Source of the DNA: Solirubrobacteraceae bacterium
Lineage (GTDB): Bacteria > Actinomycetota > Thermoleophilia > Solirubrobacterales > Solirubrobacteraceae
NCBI GenBank assembly: GCA_031177685.1
Contig: JAPSGI010000015.1
Span: forward strand, 1 to 64,000
DNA length: 64,000 nt
Direction of reading: 5' to 3'
Positions 20,403-36,492 of this stretch are shown in pieces; position 1 is the stretch's first letter, and each line of letters starts with the position of its first letter. The translations under genes were made by a program, and so were the position numbers. The notes beneath the pieces were generated by a model. It saw nothing but the letters and a program-made list of their open reading frames with translations. It had not been told where the DNA came from and made no database searches.

Positions 20403-21266
20403 ATGTGGCTTGACAGGGAACGGGCCGCGCTCGCGATCGCCATGGCCAGCACGGCCCTGCTCGCGCTCAGCGGCGCAGCCGGCGCGCAGGTGCGCGACAA
20501 CAGCGTCCGCAGCGGGGACATCCGCGACGGGAACGTGAGGGCGCAGGACCTGGCGCGGAACTCCGTGGGCAGCTCGGAGATCAAGACCGGCGCAGTGGGC
20601 GCCGCGGAGATCCGCAGGAACGCGGTCCGGGCGGCGGAGATCGCCACGAACGCGGTGCGCAGCGCCGAGCTGGCGGCCAACTCGGTCGGCACGAGCGAGG
20701 TGGACGACGACTCGCTGACCGGCAACGACATCCTCGAGTCGAGTCTTGGGCAGATCCCCCGGGCCGGCCAGGCCGACTTCGCGACGCGGGCCGGCGACGC
20801 GAGCACGGTCGGAGGCATCCCGGCGTCCAGCATCGTCACGACGAACCAGGTCGTCCCCTTCCGGGTGGCGCTCTCGTTCGGCCAGAAGGTGGAGTTCATC
20901 AGCGCGGGCCCCGTCGGGCTGGAGGCCGACTGCCGCGCGAACATCTCCGGCAACCAGGACGAGCTGCGCCTGCTGGCGCGGAGCACGACCACGGGCGCGT
21001 TCATGCAGGGCGACACGCCGCACGGTGGGCCCGGCGTGGGCTCTGACTTTTTGACGCCCGGGACGCCCGAGGACAACCGGACGATCGGCGGCATCGTCAG
21101 CACCGCGGGAGGGGCCGATCAGCCCGCCGCCGAGGACGACGTCGACGGCGGCTTCGTGGCCGGGCCCAACGGCGAGTACATCGGGATCGACGGCCACACG
21201 ATGTACGCGCTCGACGTGGGCGGCAGCGACTGCCTGCTCGTGGGCGTCGCGATCGTCTCTCGGTAG
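20403..21266 (+). CDS. Secreted repeat protein of unknown function
   Basis: A 287-residue exported protein: signal peptide with ALAIAMASTALLALSGAAGA, then about ten short repeats between residues 30 and 115 such as DNSVRSGDIRDGNV, NSVGSSEIKTGAV and NAVRAAEIATNAV. The period is roughly ten residues with alternating Val/Ile, which suggests a repetitive beta structure or fibrous stalk. The C-terminal 150 residues are not repetitive and contain two Cys. AAAGGGG at about 20391-20397 is a good ribosome site and fixes the ATG at 20403. A surface or matrix protein is inferred. Confidence 0.75.
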   Translation: MWLDRERAALAIAMASTALLALSGAAGAQVRDNSVRSGDIRDGNVRAQDLARNSVGSSEIKTGAVGAAEIRRNAVRAAEIATNAVRSAELAANSVGTSEVDDDSLTGNDILESSLGQIPRAGQADFATRAGDASTVGGIPASSIVTTNQVVPFRVALSFGQKVEFISAGPVGLEADCRANISGNQDELRLLARSTTTGAFMQGDTPHGGPGVGSDFLTPGTPEDNRTIGGIVSTAGGADQPAAEDDVDGGFVAGPNGEYIGIDGHTMYALDVGGSDCLLVGVAIVSR

Positions 21267-21274
21267 GCATGCGA

Positions 21275-21307
21275 CCGGCGGGCGTCCCGTGCCGGGGCGC
21301 CCGCCGG
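21275..21307 (+). terminator. Strong hairpin, probable terminator without T tract
   Basis: A 10-bp outer stem (21275-21284 with 21298-21307) encloses an inner CCCG/CGGG stem. It lies 8 bp after the repeat-protein stop and 5 bp before the -10 box of the next gene, so it may insulate the two units. Confidence 0.55.
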
Positions 21308-21325: not shown

Positions 21326-22288
21326 ATGCCCCGCGGCGCTGCCGATCCGGACTTCTGGCGCAACCGCCCGGTCGTCGTGACCGGCGGCGCCGGCTTCGTG
21401 GGGCGCCCGACGGTGGCGCTGCTGGAGGAGCTGGGCGCCGATGTGCGCGTGGTGCGCTCGGCCGAGTTCGACCTGCGCGAGCCGCGGGCCTGCGAGGCGG
21501 CGCTGGAGGGCGCCGACGTGGTCGTCCACCTCGCCGCCCGCGTCGGCGGCATCGGCTACAACCGGCGCAATCCGGGGCTGCTCGCGCACGACAACCTGCT
21601 GATGGGGTGCAACGTGTTCGAGGCGGCCCGCCGCCGCGGCGTGCGCAAGCTCGTGGTGGCGGGCACGGTGTGCGCGTATCCCAAGTTCACGCCCGTGCCG
21701 TTCCGCGAGGAGGACCTGTGGAGCGGCTACCCGGAGGAGACCAACGCGCCGTACGGGCTGGCCAAGAAGATGGCGCTCGTCCTCTCCGACGCCTACCGCC
21801 GCCAGTACGGCCTCGACTCGTGCGTGCCGCTGATGGTTAACCTGTACGGCCCCGGCGACGACTTCGACCTGCAGGACTCGCACGTGATCCCCGCGCTGGT
21901 CCACAAGTACGTGCTGGCGGCGGAGCGCGGGCACGCCCGGGTGGAGCTCTGGGGGACCGGACGCGCGTCGCGCGAGTTCCTGTACGTCGATGACGCCGCG
22001 CGCGCGCTCGTCCTGGCCGCCGAGCGCCTGCACACCTCCCAGCCGGTCAACGTCGGCAGCGGCCGCGAGACGAAGATCGCCGACCTTGCCGCGACCATCG
22101 CGCAGCTGACCGGCTTCGCGGGGGAGACCGTGTGGGACCCGTCCAAGCCGGACGGGCAGCCCGTGCGCTGCCTCGACGTGAGCCGGGCGCGCGAGTTGAT
22201 GGGCTTCGAGGCGCACGTCGACATGGCGGATGGCCTGCGCCGCACGGTCGAGAGCTTCCGCTCCGCCCGGCTGGCCGCGCGCGCCTGA
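21326..22288 (+). CDS. GDP-L-fucose synthase-like NAD(P)-dependent epimerase/reductase
   Basis: A 320-residue short-chain dehydrogenase of the extended type. The nucleotide-binding motif is VVVTGGAGFVGRPT, HLAARVGGIGYNRRNP and AGTVCAYPK match the Fcl family, and the catalytic Tyr-Lys pair is in APYGLAKKMAL. VNVGSGRETKI is the usual sugar-binding region. The likely reaction is epimerisation-reduction of a GDP-4-keto-6-deoxyhexose; no gmd gene is in the window. The next gene is convergent, ending 7 bp beyond this stop. Confidence 0.85.
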   Translation: MPRGAADPDFWRNRPVVVTGGAGFVGRPTVALLEELGADVRVVRSAEFDLREPRACEAALEGADVVVHLAARVGGIGYNRRNPGLLAHDNLLMGCNVFEAARRRGVRKLVVAGTVCAYPKFTPVPFREEDLWSGYPEETNAPYGLAKKMALVLSDAYRRQYGLDSCVPLMVNLYGPGDDFDLQDSHVIPALVHKYVLAAERGHARVELWGTGRASREFLYVDDAARALVLAAERLHTSQPVNVGSGRETKIADLAATIAQLTGFAGETVWDPSKPDGQPVRCLDVSRARELMGFEAHVDMADGLRRTVESFRSARLAARA

Positions 22289-33283: not shown

Positions 33284-34861
33284 CTACTTCAGGTTCAGCA
33301 CGATTCGCGCGAGCTGCTTGTCGCCCTGCACGCGCGACCCCGCCGCCAGCGTGGTGAACGCGCCGAGGTACTGGCGGATCTGCGCCGCGGCCTCGGGGCT
33401 CGCGGCGGCCACCAGCTCCGCGATCGGCGCGAACGCCACGTACAGCGCGGGCTGCCCGCCGCCCAGCGACGACGTCGCCTGCTGGAACTGCGGCGAGTCG
33501 CCGAGCGTCTTGTTCGGCGACAGGGCCCGGCGGGTCGCCGCGTCCGTGTAGGCGATCACGAGCCGGTCCCCGCGCAGGACGGCGTTGATCGTCCCCGGCA
33601 GTCGCGGGATCTCGATCTTCAGCCCCCGCGCGCCCGCCACGTTGGCGTCCGAGACGGTGACCCCCTCACCCGCCTGCCGCGCGATCAGCGGCTGGAGCCG
33701 GTCGAGCACGCGGCGCGCGGCCGCGGGCTCCGGCGTCTGGATCACGACGCCGCCGCCCACCGTCAGGATGCTGGAGCCCTCCGCGAACACCGCCATCTCG
33801 CCCAGCGCGGGGATGATGTCGCGGTTGAGGTCCAGGCCGGTCACGGCGCGGACCTGCTGCTCCGCGGTCTGGACGATGCCGGCGCCCACGCCGCTGCCGA
33901 TCTGGTCGAGCGTCTGCTTGAGCAGCTGGCCGAGGTTGGGCAGCCCCAGCGCCAGCCAGGCGTCGCCCGGGAGCTCGGGCACGAGCTCGCTCGGCCGGGC
34001 CTTGCGCGCCTGGGCCGTGAGGCCGGAGATCGCCTCCAGCGTCACGTTGTCGGGCTTTGCGTCGAGGGTCATCGTGACCGGCTGGTTGGCGTTGCCGAGC
34101 AGCTGCTGCAGGTTCTGCGGGCCGATCGGCACCCGTCCCTGCGCGCCGAGCGAGGTGATCAGCGCCCGCGTGTCCACGAAGGCGAAGCCGAGCTTGTCGT
34201 CGCCGTCCTTCGCCGCATCGGAGAACTGCTTGTTGTCGGTCAGGCCCTCGCCCTTGGAGGCGTCGACCGCCGCCTTGAAGGCCCGCTCGGTCCCGATCAC
34301 GACGTAGTCGTCCACCACGCCGGCCGCCGACTGGTCGTCGGCGTCGAAGCGGTACTCGACGCCGTCGTACTCGCGCTTGGGCGCCTTGGGCGTCTCCTGG
34401 TCGCCGAGCTCGTTCACCGCGTCCTTCGCCTTGTCGGTGTCCTTGACCGCCACGATCGCCGCGACCTGCGACTCGTCGCCGGTCGTGTCGAGCGTCGTCA
34501 CGGCCAGGCCGGCCCGGCGCCCCAGCCACGGCTCGATGTCGTCCTCGTAGGTCATCTTCGAGCCGGAGTCGCGGATGGACCGGTTGATCAGGTCCTCGAT
34601 CCGCTTGCCGGGATCGTTCACGCCGAGGACCTTCTTGGCGATCGCGTCGACCGCTTCCTTCTGATCGCCCTCGGGCCGCACCTGGGCGGTGAGCCAGATC
34701 AGCGTGTTCTTCGGAGCGATCTTGGCGGGATCCGCGTCCTCGTCGCCGCCACCGCCTCCGCCGCACCCGGCGGCGACCAGGGCCGCGAGCGCGAGCAGAA
34801 CTGCGACCAGCGCCGGAACGGCGCGCCGGGAAAGAGATGAGAGGGGGGATACGCGCGGCAC
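33284..34861 (-). CDS. DUF3352-like lipoprotein
   Basis: A 525-residue protein. The N-terminus is a lipoprotein signal: basic residues, ALVAVLLALAALVAAGC with the lipobox Cys at residue 33, then a Gly run and acidic linker. The rest (PKNTLIWLTAQVRPEGDQK onward, with DDYVVIGTERAFKAAVDA and WLALGLPNLGQLLKQTL) matches DUF3352, a family of unknown function common in actinobacteria. GTG 34861 follows AAGGAGG by 6 nt on the minus strand, which fixes the start. It is divergent from mraZ, so it may be linked to envelope growth by position only. Confidence 0.83.
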   Translation of the reverse strand: MPRVSPLSSLSRRAVPALVAVLLALAALVAAGCGGGGGGDEDADPAKIAPKNTLIWLTAQVRPEGDQKEAVDAIAKKVLGVNDPGKRIEDLINRSIRDSGSKMTYEDDIEPWLGRRAGLAVTTLDTTGDESQVAAIVAVKDTDKAKDAVNELGDQETPKAPKREYDGVEYRFDADDQSAAGVVDDYVVIGTERAFKAAVDASKGEGLTDNKQFSDAAKDGDDKLGFAFVDTRALITSLGAQGRVPIGPQNLQQLLGNANQPVTMTLDAKPDNVTLEAISGLTAQARKARPSELVPELPGDAWLALGLPNLGQLLKQTLDQIGSGVGAGIVQTAEQQVRAVTGLDLNRDIIPALGEMAVFAEGSSILTVGGGVVIQTPEPAAARRVLDRLQPLIARQAGEGVTVSDANVAGARGLKIEIPRLPGTINAVLRGDRLVIAYTDAATRRALSPNKTLGDSPQFQQATSSLGGGQPALYVAFAPIAELVAAASPEAAAQIRQYLGAFTTLAAGSRVQGDKQLARIVLNLK

Positions 34862-34990
34862 GAAGGGCCTCCTTGGCGGGAGCGGGGAACGGCGCAGGAT
34901 GCTAGCGGCGCGCCGGCCGGCAAGACCCCGCCTACCGAACGCGGGGTGGGCCGGCGCTAAAGCTCCGTGGGAGAAAAGTCGAAGAAAGGG

Positions 34991-35019
34991 TTGCAGAGTG
35001 GGGCAAAGTGGGATACCTT
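34991..35019 (+). promoter_or_regulatory. mraZ/dcw promoter with MraZ boxes
   Basis: TTGCAG (34991-34996), 17-bp spacer, TACCTT (35014-35019). Two GTGGG boxes at 34998-35002 and 35008-35012, exactly 10 bp apart, fill the spacer. GTGGG repeats at this period are the known MraZ target, so autorepression is likely. Further GTGGG words lie at 34946 and 34967. Confidence 0.75.
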
Positions 35020-35037
35020 CGCCTCGCACAGCGACTT

Positions 35038-35080
35038 GGACCGGGGTGGCGGGGCTCCTCCCACTCCGCCACCTCGGTCC
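35038..35080 (+). promoter_or_regulatory. Leader hairpin upstream of mraZ
   Basis: A 15-bp stem (35038-35052 with 35066-35080) with one G-U wobble and a 13-nt loop, in the transcribed leader about 28 nt before the mraZ start. There is no T tract. It might protect the mRNA, modulate mraZ translation or act as a pause site. Confidence 0.6.
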
Positions 35081-35108
35081 TCGAAGCCCCCCAGCCACCA
35101 AGGATCCA

Positions 35109-35543
35109 GTGGCCTTCCGCGGCACCTTCGACTTCACGCTCGACGCCAAGAACCGGCTGACCGTCCCGTCGCGCTTTCGGGCCGCCCTCGCCGACGGCGT
35201 CGTCCTCGCCAAGGGGATCGAGCGCAACGTGGCGCTGTGGACCCCCGACGCCTACGACGCCCAGATCCGGGCCGCCCTGGCCGGCCGCAATCCCGCCTCG
35301 CCCCAGGCCCGTGAGCTGCGCCGCTTCTTCTCCGCCAACGCCCACGACACCGAGCTGGACTCCGCCGGCCGCGTCGCCATCCCGGCCTTCCTGATCGAGC
35401 ATGCCGCCCTGGACCGCGAGGTCGTCGTGACGGGCGCCGGCGACTGCCTGGAGGTCTGGGACCGCGACGCCTGGCGCGACTACAACGAGGGCCTGACCGG
35501 CCGAATCACCGACATCACCGCGAGCCTTGACACTTCTCCTTGA
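35109..35543 (+). CDS. mraZ: Transcriptional regulator MraZ
   Basis: DNA-binding repressor of the division and cell wall cluster, 144 residues, with two SpoVT/AbrB-like MraZ repeats: FRGTFDFTLDAKNRLTVPSRFR at the start and AHDTELDSAGRVAIPAFLIEHA from about residue 78. The GTG at 35109 is preceded by AAGGA at 35100-35104. It is the first dcw gene and 1 bp separates its stop from the rsmH ATG. MraZ boxes lie in its promoter. Confidence 0.95.
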   Translation: MAFRGTFDFTLDAKNRLTVPSRFRAALADGVVLAKGIERNVALWTPDAYDAQIRAALAGRNPASPQARELRRFFSANAHDTELDSAGRVAIPAFLIEHAALDREVVVTGAGDCLEVWDRDAWRDYNEGLTGRITDITASLDTSP

Positions 35544-35544
35544 C

Positions 35545-36492
35545 ATGACGGCGATCCACGTCCCGGTGCTGGCGGGCGAACTGATCGATGCGCTCGCGCC
35601 GCGGCCCGGCCAGGTCGCCGTCGACGCGACCGTCGGGGGCGGGGGACACGCGCGCCTGATCGCCGACCGCCTGGGGCCCGGCGGCACGCTGATCGGCATC
35701 GACCGCGACCCGATCGCCGAGGAGCGCTTCGCGGAGCTGGCGGCCGAGGTGTCGTGCGAGACCCGCTTCATCCGCGCCACGTTCGCCGAGGGGCTGGAGC
35801 AGCTGCGCGACGAGGGGCTGCGCGCCGACATGATCACGCTGGACCTCGGCATGTCCTCGCTGCAGGTCGACACGCGCGAGCGCGGCTTCTCCTACTCCTA
35901 CGACGCGCCGCTGGACATGCGCATGGACCCGCGCCAGCCGCTGACCGCGGCCGAGGTCGTCAACCATTGGGACGAGCGCCGGCTGGCGCGCGTGCTGCGC
36001 GAGTACGGCGAGGAGCGCTACGCGGCCCGCATCGCCCGCGCGATCGCCCGCCGCCGTCGCGAGGCGCCCCTCGAGACGACCCACGAGCTGGTGGACGCCG
36101 TCAAGGCGGCGATCCCCGTCCCGGCGCAGTTCGCGGGCGGACATCCGGCCAAGCGCACCTTCCAGGCGATCCGCATCGCGGTCAACGACGAGCTCGAGCA
36201 GCTCGACCGGGCACTGCCGCTGGCCTGGGCGGTGCTGCGCGAGGGCGGGCGCATGGGCGTCATCTCCTTCCACTCGCTCGAGGACCGCCGCGTCAAGCGC
36301 TTCCTGGCCGACCGCGCGCGCGGGTGCGTGTGCCCGCCGGACCTGCCGGTGTGCGTGTGCGGCCGCGAGCCCGAGGCCGAGCTGGTCACGCGCAAGTCCG
36401 TCGTGCCGACCGCCGGCGAGGTCGCGCACAACCCGCGCTCGAAGTCCGCGCGCCTGCGCGCCGCGCGCAAGGTCCGGGAGGTCGCGGCGTGA
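35545..36492 (+). CDS. rsmH: 16S rRNA (cytosine(1402)-N(4))-methyltransferase RsmH
   Basis: Methylates the 16S rRNA P-site cytosine with SAM. The 315-residue protein has HVPVLAGELIDAL, the SAM motif VAVDATVGGGGHARLI, DLGMSSLQVD, ERGFSYSYDAPLDMRMD and the C-terminal FHSLEDRRVKRF, all RsmH marks. The ATG at 35545 is chosen; TTG 35527 inside mraZ is an alternative. The stop overlaps the ftsL start (GTGA). Confidence 0.96.
   Translation: MTAIHVPVLAGELIDALAPRPGQVAVDATVGGGGHARLIADRLGPGGTLIGIDRDPIAEERFAELAAEVSCETRFIRATFAEGLEQLRDEGLRADMITLDLGMSSLQVDTRERGFSYSYDAPLDMRMDPRQPLTAAEVVNHWDERRLARVLREYGEERYAARIARAIARRRREAPLETTHELVDAVKAAIPVPAQFAGGHPAKRTFQAIRIAVNDELEQLDRALPLAWAVLREGGRMGVISFHSLEDRRVKRFLADRARGCVCPPDLPVCVCGREPEAELVTRKSVVPTAGEVAHNPRSKSARLRAARKVREVAA

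What the first reader, a model, noticed from the sequence alone, without database searches (positions are those of the whole stretch)
35038..35080. Long hairpin in the mraZ leader
A 15-bp stem with one G-U pair lies between the mraZ promoter and its start codon and will be in the mRNA. It has no T tract, so it is not a standard terminator. It might set dcw mRNA stability or mraZ translation. I know of no described leader structure of this type for dcw operons.
Basis: partly seen in the sequence, partly recalled or inferred. Interest (0 to 1): 0.5.

Follow-up and report, generated by a model that had tools for sequence, protein, structure and literature searches.

The report
Conserved RNA hairpin before mraZ
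The messenger RNA of a bacterial cell-division gene cluster appears to begin with a strong hairpin whose exposed loop, CCUCCC, is the same in every relative read across one bacterial order, which points to an undescribed regulatory RNA element.

Summary
The hairpin (35038-35080) folds as 17 pairs with a 9-nt loop (-36.7 kcal/mol; 0 of 200 shuffles as good). It is found in the mraZ leaders of the window's order (Solirubrobacterales): 133 of 133 readable leaders (95 of the window's family, 38 of three others) carry CCUCCC, wholly unpaired in 132 of 133 predicted folds. The stem covaries: 16 of 20 pairs change on both sides, reached by 0 of 500 shuffles. It lies just behind a promoter that holds MraZ-box-like repeats, is single-copy in the genomes searched, and the model found it in no other order. 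Rfam has no match above threshold.

I read it as a cis-acting RNA whose loop is bound in trans by a factor dedicated to this operon, the stem also shielding the 5' end. The partner is unknown; RsmH is a guess. Function and transcript start are not shown.

The parts
34991..34996 (+). -35 element TTGCAG of the mraZ promoter (17-nt spacer to the -10)
   Evidence: sequence; a loose TTG...TA pattern around TGG found in 121 of 133 order leaders. The simple sigma-70 scan did not report it.
34998..35002 (+). MraZ-box-like repeat 1 (GTGGG) inside the promoter spacer
   Evidence: paired boxes with a 10-base period in 133 of 133 leaders by a loose pattern; box 1 is GTGGG in 125 of 133. That this is what MraZ binds is recalled knowledge.
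35008..35012 (+). MraZ-box-like repeat 2 (GTGGG)
   Evidence: GTGGG in 97 of 133
35014..35019 (+). -10 element TACCTT; predicted transcription start about 35026
   Evidence: sequence; TACTAT/TAGTAT in some relatives; gap from -10 to stem base median 11, mode 9 in 121 leaders
35038..35054 (+). 5' arm of the hairpin stem (17 pairs)
35055..35063 (+). apical loop cUCCUCCCa; CCUCCC (35057-35062) is invariant
   Evidence: 133 of 133 readable order leaders
35064..35080 (+). 3' arm of the hairpin stem
35100..35104 (+). weak Shine-Dalgarno-like AAGGA before mraZ
   Evidence: sequence; AAGGA in 24 of 133 stretches between stem and first codons, shuffle mean 6.1
35109..35543 (+). mraZ, 144 aa, GTG start
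   Evidence: PF02381 match in this genome at this place
35545..36492 (+). rsmH (mraW), 315 aa, one base after the mraZ stop
   Evidence: named from its sequence and its place behind mraZ (recalled family knowledge, no family scan run)

Best explanation
A cis-regulatory RNA element at the 5' end of the dcw mRNA of Solirubrobacterales. Transcription from a promoter that holds MraZ boxes starts just upstream of the stem, so the first structure made is a hairpin of 17 or more pairs that shows a single-stranded (U/A)CCUCCC loop. Shown: the stem covaries, the loop hexamer is invariant, it is free in predicted folds, the element is single-copy and lies before mraZ. Inferred: it is in the transcript; the loop is read by a trans-acting partner dedicated to this operon, which adjusts stability or translation of the mraZ-rsmH mRNA after MraZ has set transcription; the stem also hinders 5'-end-dependent decay. 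The most economical partner is a product of the operon itself (autogenous control), RsmH being the obvious RNA-binding candidate; this last step is a guess.
For: Covariation: 16 of 20 pairs with changes on both sides, score 0.290 against 0.148 +/- 0.007 shuffled, 0/500; sliding the partner by 1-3 columns drops it to 0.034-0.103 (81 distinct sequences). An unguided consensus fold gives 14 pairs, 11 with changes on both sides. CCUCCC in 133 of 133, wholly unpaired in 132 of 133 predicted folds of leader plus first codons. One place per genome: 90 of 90 matching genomes at E<=0.001 (the second matches of five genomes are the other strand of the same place; strict filters), 21 of 21 relatives at E<=1 with laxer filters apart from weak matches at G022:C76 (0.06) and G000:C22 (0.76). 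All 38 matches outside the family are followed by mraZ. The 6 order genomes outside the family that are listed without a match have no mraZ (5) or a fragment (1), so hairpin and mraZ go together. Promoter pattern directly upstream in 121 of 133.
Against: No transcript, binding or expression data, and no partner identified. The loop octamer itself is common: 120 places in this genome, against 46 for the pattern read backwards. Loop invariance could serve folding or an RNase site. The similarity of the loop to the RsmH target in 16S rRNA (recalled sequence) is no better than shuffled loops give (fractions 0.16, 0.32, 0.04 and, for the mraW RNA loop, 0.13). Distance from loop to start varies widely (36-133 nt), so a tight translational switch is not implied. 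The counts are of sequences, not of independent events.
Confidence: 0.45

Rival explanations
1. A constitutive 5'-end stabiliser: the stem at the very 5' end blocks 5'-end-dependent RNases, and the loop is kept for folding speed or stability only.
For: Strong fold in the leaders (median -36.1, range -51.6 to -30.3 kcal/mol over 133); modal gap of 9 nt from -10 to stem base would leave only about 3 unpaired 5' bases.
Against: A stabiliser needs no invariant loop hexamer; many stem pairs vary while CCUCCC does not in 133 of 133. In the window itself about 12 bases would precede the stem.
Confidence: 0.25
2. Transcription-elongation signal: the nascent hairpin binds RNA polymerase or an elongation factor and sets processivity through the long dcw operon (put- or LoaP-like, recalled).
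For: Hairpin near the predicted 5' end with a conserved loop ahead of a long operon; single copy; no terminator tail.
Against: I looked for no downstream terminator it would have to overcome, and no factor is known here.
Confidence: 0.12
3. Target of a trans-acting small RNA carrying GGGAGG, pairing with the loop.
For: Loop invariant and predicted free.
Against: No such RNA is known; none was searched for genome-wide. In cis the complement is not provided: GGGAGG in 0 of 133 and GGAGG in 1 of 133 downstream segments (mononucleotide-shuffle means 1.3 and 6.8).
Confidence: 0.1
4. A DNA feature: an inverted third MraZ box or cruciform in which the loop (reverse complement GTGGGAGG) is bound by MraZ.
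For: In 120 of 133 leaders the loop read on the other strand contains GTGGG, the promoter box. If the innermost C-A apposition (89 of 123) is counted as part of the stem, the sense-strand G-U excess nearly vanishes (155 to 135; from the table).
Against: 13 of 133 loops have lost the GTGGG complement (10 GCGGG, 2 TTGGG, 1 ATGGG) while a GTGGG box stays in the promoter; one of the 13, L081, also has ATGGG among its promoter boxes, so 12 are clear. The invariant core is CCUCCC, not CCCAC. Over the 17 outer pairs G-U cells exceed A-C cells 150 to 46.
Confidence: 0.07

Closest known systems
mraW RNA motif (Rfam RF01746; Weinberg et al. 2010, PMC2864571)
   Same: Hairpin element of actinobacterial mraZ-rsmH operons with a C-rich loop; in the 12 loci where rsmH was recognised a CUUCCCC loop lies 38-70 nt behind the mraZ stop. 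Shared loop pattern C-Y-U-C-C-C.
   Different: It sits between mraZ and rsmH, not before mraZ; its predicted stem has internal loops; no cross-match either way: RF01746 not at this place at E<=10, R1 not on those 12 loci at E<=1. In the window rsmH follows mraZ after one base, so there is no room for it there.
UpsM 5' leader of the R. sphaeroides dcw cluster (PMC5089854)
   Same: Structured leader ahead of mraZ.
   Different: UpsM comes from a 268-nt leader with a Rho-independent terminator that releases an sRNA (abstract and section 8 read). Here the predicted leader is about 83 nt and no terminator is called.
MraW-dependent stem-loops in B. subtilis mRNAs such as cmpA (preprint, PMC13317604, passages read)
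   Same: Links a stem-loop near a start codon to the rRNA methyltransferase MraW.
   Different: Those stem-loops occlude the first codons; this hairpin lies upstream of the start codon and shows a conserved loop.

Membership tests
mraW RNA (RF01746) | covariance-model score at or above the family's gathering score (50 bits) | tested here: not met
   no match in the window, none at E<=10 in 34900-35200, none in 18 order loci, no match in the 7 order genomes listed (control: rings in Corynebacterium glutamicum)
mraW RNA (RF01746) | terminal loop CUUCCCC | tested here: not met
   order loops are (U/A)CCUCCC in 133 of 133; CUUCCCC in the 12 mraW RNA loci (searched for as C[CT]TCCCC)
mraW RNA (RF01746) | placed between mraZ and mraW | tested here: not met
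   hairpin precedes mraZ; rsmH starts one base after the mraZ stop in the window
UpsM-type dcw leader | long leader with a Rho-independent terminator | tested here: not met
   0 terminator-like sites in 34000-36000; predicted leader about 83 nt (inferred from promoter)
intrinsic terminator | T tract after the stem | tested here: not met
   sequence after 35080 is TCGAAGCC
MraZ operator | TGGG-type box kept in all members | tested here: not met
   13 of 133 loops lack the GTGGG complement, 12 of them clearly
structured cis-regulatory leader RNA | covarying stem, conserved exposed loop, fixed place before one operon | tested here: met
structured cis-regulatory leader RNA | changes expression of the operon | not testable with these tools
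   needs reporter and mRNA half-life experiments
structured cis-regulatory leader RNA | present in the transcript (TSS upstream) | tested here: inconclusive
   promoter pattern in 121 of 133 leaders, its -10 ending 8-28 nt before the stem in 119 of those 121; no transcript data

The most novel reading that the evidence does not exclude
The loop imitates the 16S rRNA site of RsmH (around C1402, recalled sequence CACCGCCCGU), so RsmH binds its own mRNA leader and limits its operon. The mraW RNA of other actinobacteria (loop CUUCCCC, function unknown) would be the same device at another place, tying ribosome maturation to cell division in two lineages.
Probability: 0.1. Interest if true: 0.85.

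Novelty: new variant of a known kind. Interest (0 to 1): 0.52.

Why it matters
If right, it adds a second, post-transcriptional layer at the head of a widely conserved cell-division operon, with a defined hexamer that can be mutated and used as bait. It also gives the orphan mraW RNA motif, whose function is stated as unknown (PMC5640933, passage read), a possible counterpart and so a comparative handle.

Tried and rejected
MraZ box in the loop: unlikely, 13 of 133 loops lose it (12 clearly) while the promoter keeps a box. Pseudoknot with a Shine-Dalgarno in cis: unlikely, the complement is under-represented downstream. Terminator: no T tract. Member of RF01746: no match in either direction. 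Known Rfam family: 13 sub-threshold matches at E<=10 in 34900-35200, the best mir-4776 at E 0.16, taken as chance. A regulon: no second convincing copy in 21 relatives at E<=1. rRNA mimicry: 6 of 10 letters match, but shuffled loops do as well in 16% of cases, so it is kept only as a guess. Rfam accession first misrecalled (RF01760, an unrelated family). The scan of genome contigs with MraZ gave only 3 loci.

Rows dropped: 2 leaders with N in or near the hairpin (L030, L060) before all counts of 133; 10 of 133 that did not fit one ungapped register before the counts; 7 repeated hairpins before alignment A1 (88 to 81). Of 123 family genomes with mraZ I read 97 leaders (90, 7 more); 26 were not read. 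Start codons were placed by alignment: 115 of 133 fall on ATG, GTG or TTG, 18 on other triplets, so distances to the start are approximate. The strand comparison 150 to 46 leaves out the innermost apposition, C-A in 89 of 123; with it the figures are 155 to 135 (table).

Full report
What is there. The hairpin at 35038-35080 is real. Its fold energy is far outside dinucleotide shuffles (z -6.87, 0 of 200); the longer stretch 35020-35135 gives z -3.33, 1 of 200. A scan for comparable stems finds two in the window and two in twelve shuffled windows together. The repeat finder with its 9-base seed did not list it.

Setting. Upstream lie TTGCAG (34991), two GTGGG boxes ten bases apart (34998, 35008) and TACCTT (35014), a 17-nt spacer. 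The simple scan for sigma-70 promoters reported none, but relatives show better versions such as TTGACA-16-TACTAT, and a loose promoter pattern is found in 121 of 133 leaders. The predicted start is about 35026, some 12 bases before the stem; in the commonest spacing in relatives only about 3 bases would precede it. mraZ starts at 35109 and rsmH one base after its stop.

Relatives. A protein search in 146 genomes of the family gave mraZ in 123. I read 90 of those leaders at first and 7 more later, plus 38 leaders from three other families of the order, which are all the matches outside the family of the model built here. Two leaders have N in or near the hairpin. The other 133 all contain CCUCCC, and the windows around it fold strongly (median -36.1 kcal/mol); in predicted folds of leader plus first codons the hexamer is wholly unpaired in 132 of 133. 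The 38, and the 7 later ones of the family, were fetched at model matches, so they do not by themselves show that every member has the hairpin; the 90 were fetched through the protein alone, and the 88 readable ones all have it. As a check on absence, the 6 order genomes outside the family listed without a model match have no mraZ, or in one case a fragment. In the family 7 are listed without a match: G123, G142 and G143 do have the hairpin; in G145 the mraZ match starts at the contig's second base, so its leader is not in the assembly; G016, G051 and G073 have no mraZ. In ten order genomes searched for rsmH, six gave nothing and four only weak partial matches (E 5.8e-5 to 3e-4, 33-45% identity), which suggests that the whole locus is missing from those assemblies; that call held no genome known to have rsmH as a control.

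Covariation. On 81 distinct sequences, 16 of 20 pairs change on both sides; all five measures exceed 500 of 500 shuffles and all slid versions. The unguided consensus fold has 14 pairs, 11 with changes on both sides. These counts are of sequences, not of independent events. Over 123 leaders in one register, several pairs show three Watson-Crick types, for example A-T 54, C-G 40, T-A 18 at one pair. Over the 17 outer pairs, G-U cells on the sense strand exceed A-C cells 150 to 46, as an RNA read from this strand would give; but the innermost apposition, which I count to the loop, is C-A in 89 of 123 and would make it 155 to 135, so this is weak support. Two divergent members (L088, L089) have largely different stems with the same CCUCCC.

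Range. In 299 genomes of the class, 90 match the model, 52 in the window's family and 38 in the rest of the order; in 296 of the phylum, 7, all in the order. Both used strict filters, which lost at least three true members. I read 28 mraZ leaders from three families of other orders of the class (f6, f7, f9; none of f5, f8 or f10): the last box pair ends 35 bases or less before the conserved N-terminal motif of MraZ in 27 of 28 and 71 bases in one (L161), which leaves no room for such a hairpin in the 27. Two of the 28 (L156, L171) do contain CCTCCC, but upstream of the promoter-like stretch. The model finds one match at E 0.79 in these loci and the mraW RNA loci together. The order is named from a MAG record, L201, whose contig length equals that of G072:C52, placed in the window's family.

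One copy. Five of the 90 genomes have a second match, in each case the other strand of the same place. With laxer filters 21 relatives show only this place, apart from the other strand and two weak matches (G022:C76, E 0.06; G000:C22, E 0.76). The octamer TCCTCCCA by itself is common, 120 places in this genome. A factor with a single target fits self-regulation of the operon better than a global regulator; this is an inference.

What the loop is not. It reads GTGGG on the other strand, like an MraZ box, but 13 of 133 loops do not (10 GCGGG, 2 TTGGG, 1 ATGGG), while a GTGGG box stays in the promoter; in L081 the variant ATGGG also occurs as a promoter box. It resembles the anti-Shine-Dalgarno core, but its complement is not provided in cis: GGAGG occurs in 1 of 133 downstream segments, fewer than the 6.8 of mononucleotide shuffles, while AAGGA is over-represented (24 against 6.1); I did not compare other genes' leaders.

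Comparison with what is known. The mraW RNA (RF01746) matched 15 of 246 phylum genomes, 11 over the cut-off, and none of the 7 order genomes listed. In the 12 of 15 loci where rsmH was recognised, CUUCCCC lies 38-70 nt after the mraZ stop. The resemblance C-Y-U-C-C-C is notable but both loops are C-rich, and the models do not cross-match. RNA-seq in C. glutamicum (PMC3890552) and C. diphtheriae (PMC5784534), passages read, puts the start of mraW inside or downstream of that motif, so its role as RNA is itself unsettled. UpsM (PMC5089854, abstract and one section read) is a different kind of leader. I found no print record of this element in an open-access library: 'mraZ leader dcw', 'mraZ Solirubrobacter', 'mraW RNA' and 'mraW motif', MraW with C1402 and autoregulation, and mraZ with hairpin and untranslated region.

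Mechanism. Shown: covarying stem, invariant loop, place, single copy. Inferred: presence in the transcript, a trans partner, an effect on stability or translation. Guess: RsmH as partner. The rRNA resemblance gives no statistical support. I recall, from a paper I could not open, that RsmH prefers assembled 30S subunits to naked rRNA, which would speak against the guess.

Noticed in passing
window 21275-21307: A second stem of 15 pairs with a 3-base loop, upstream of an ATG at 21326 and behind a TAG near 21265, without a T tract.
   Followed up: no
L030 and L060, mraZ leaders: N's fall inside the hairpin, as if assemblies break or are patched at it.
   Followed up: no
L184-L195 (mraW RNA loci): The orphan mraW RNA motif shows CUUCCCC at the tip region of its hairpin in the 12 loci with a recognised rsmH, close to the CCUCCC loop found here.
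   Followed up: partly
133 order leaders, stem end to first codons: GGAGG is nearly absent (1 of 133), and only 49 of 133 have a short Shine-Dalgarno-like tetramer near the start.
   Followed up: partly
G022:C76:738-790: Weak model match on both strands (E 0.06 and 0.12), the best candidate for a second copy in a relative.
   Followed up: no
L154-L183: Some leaders in other orders of the class carry three or four MraZ-box-like repeats with a 10-base period right before the start.
   Followed up: no
L156 and L171, upstream of the mraZ promoter: CCTCCCAC occurs upstream of the promoter-like stretch in two leaders of another order.
   Followed up: no
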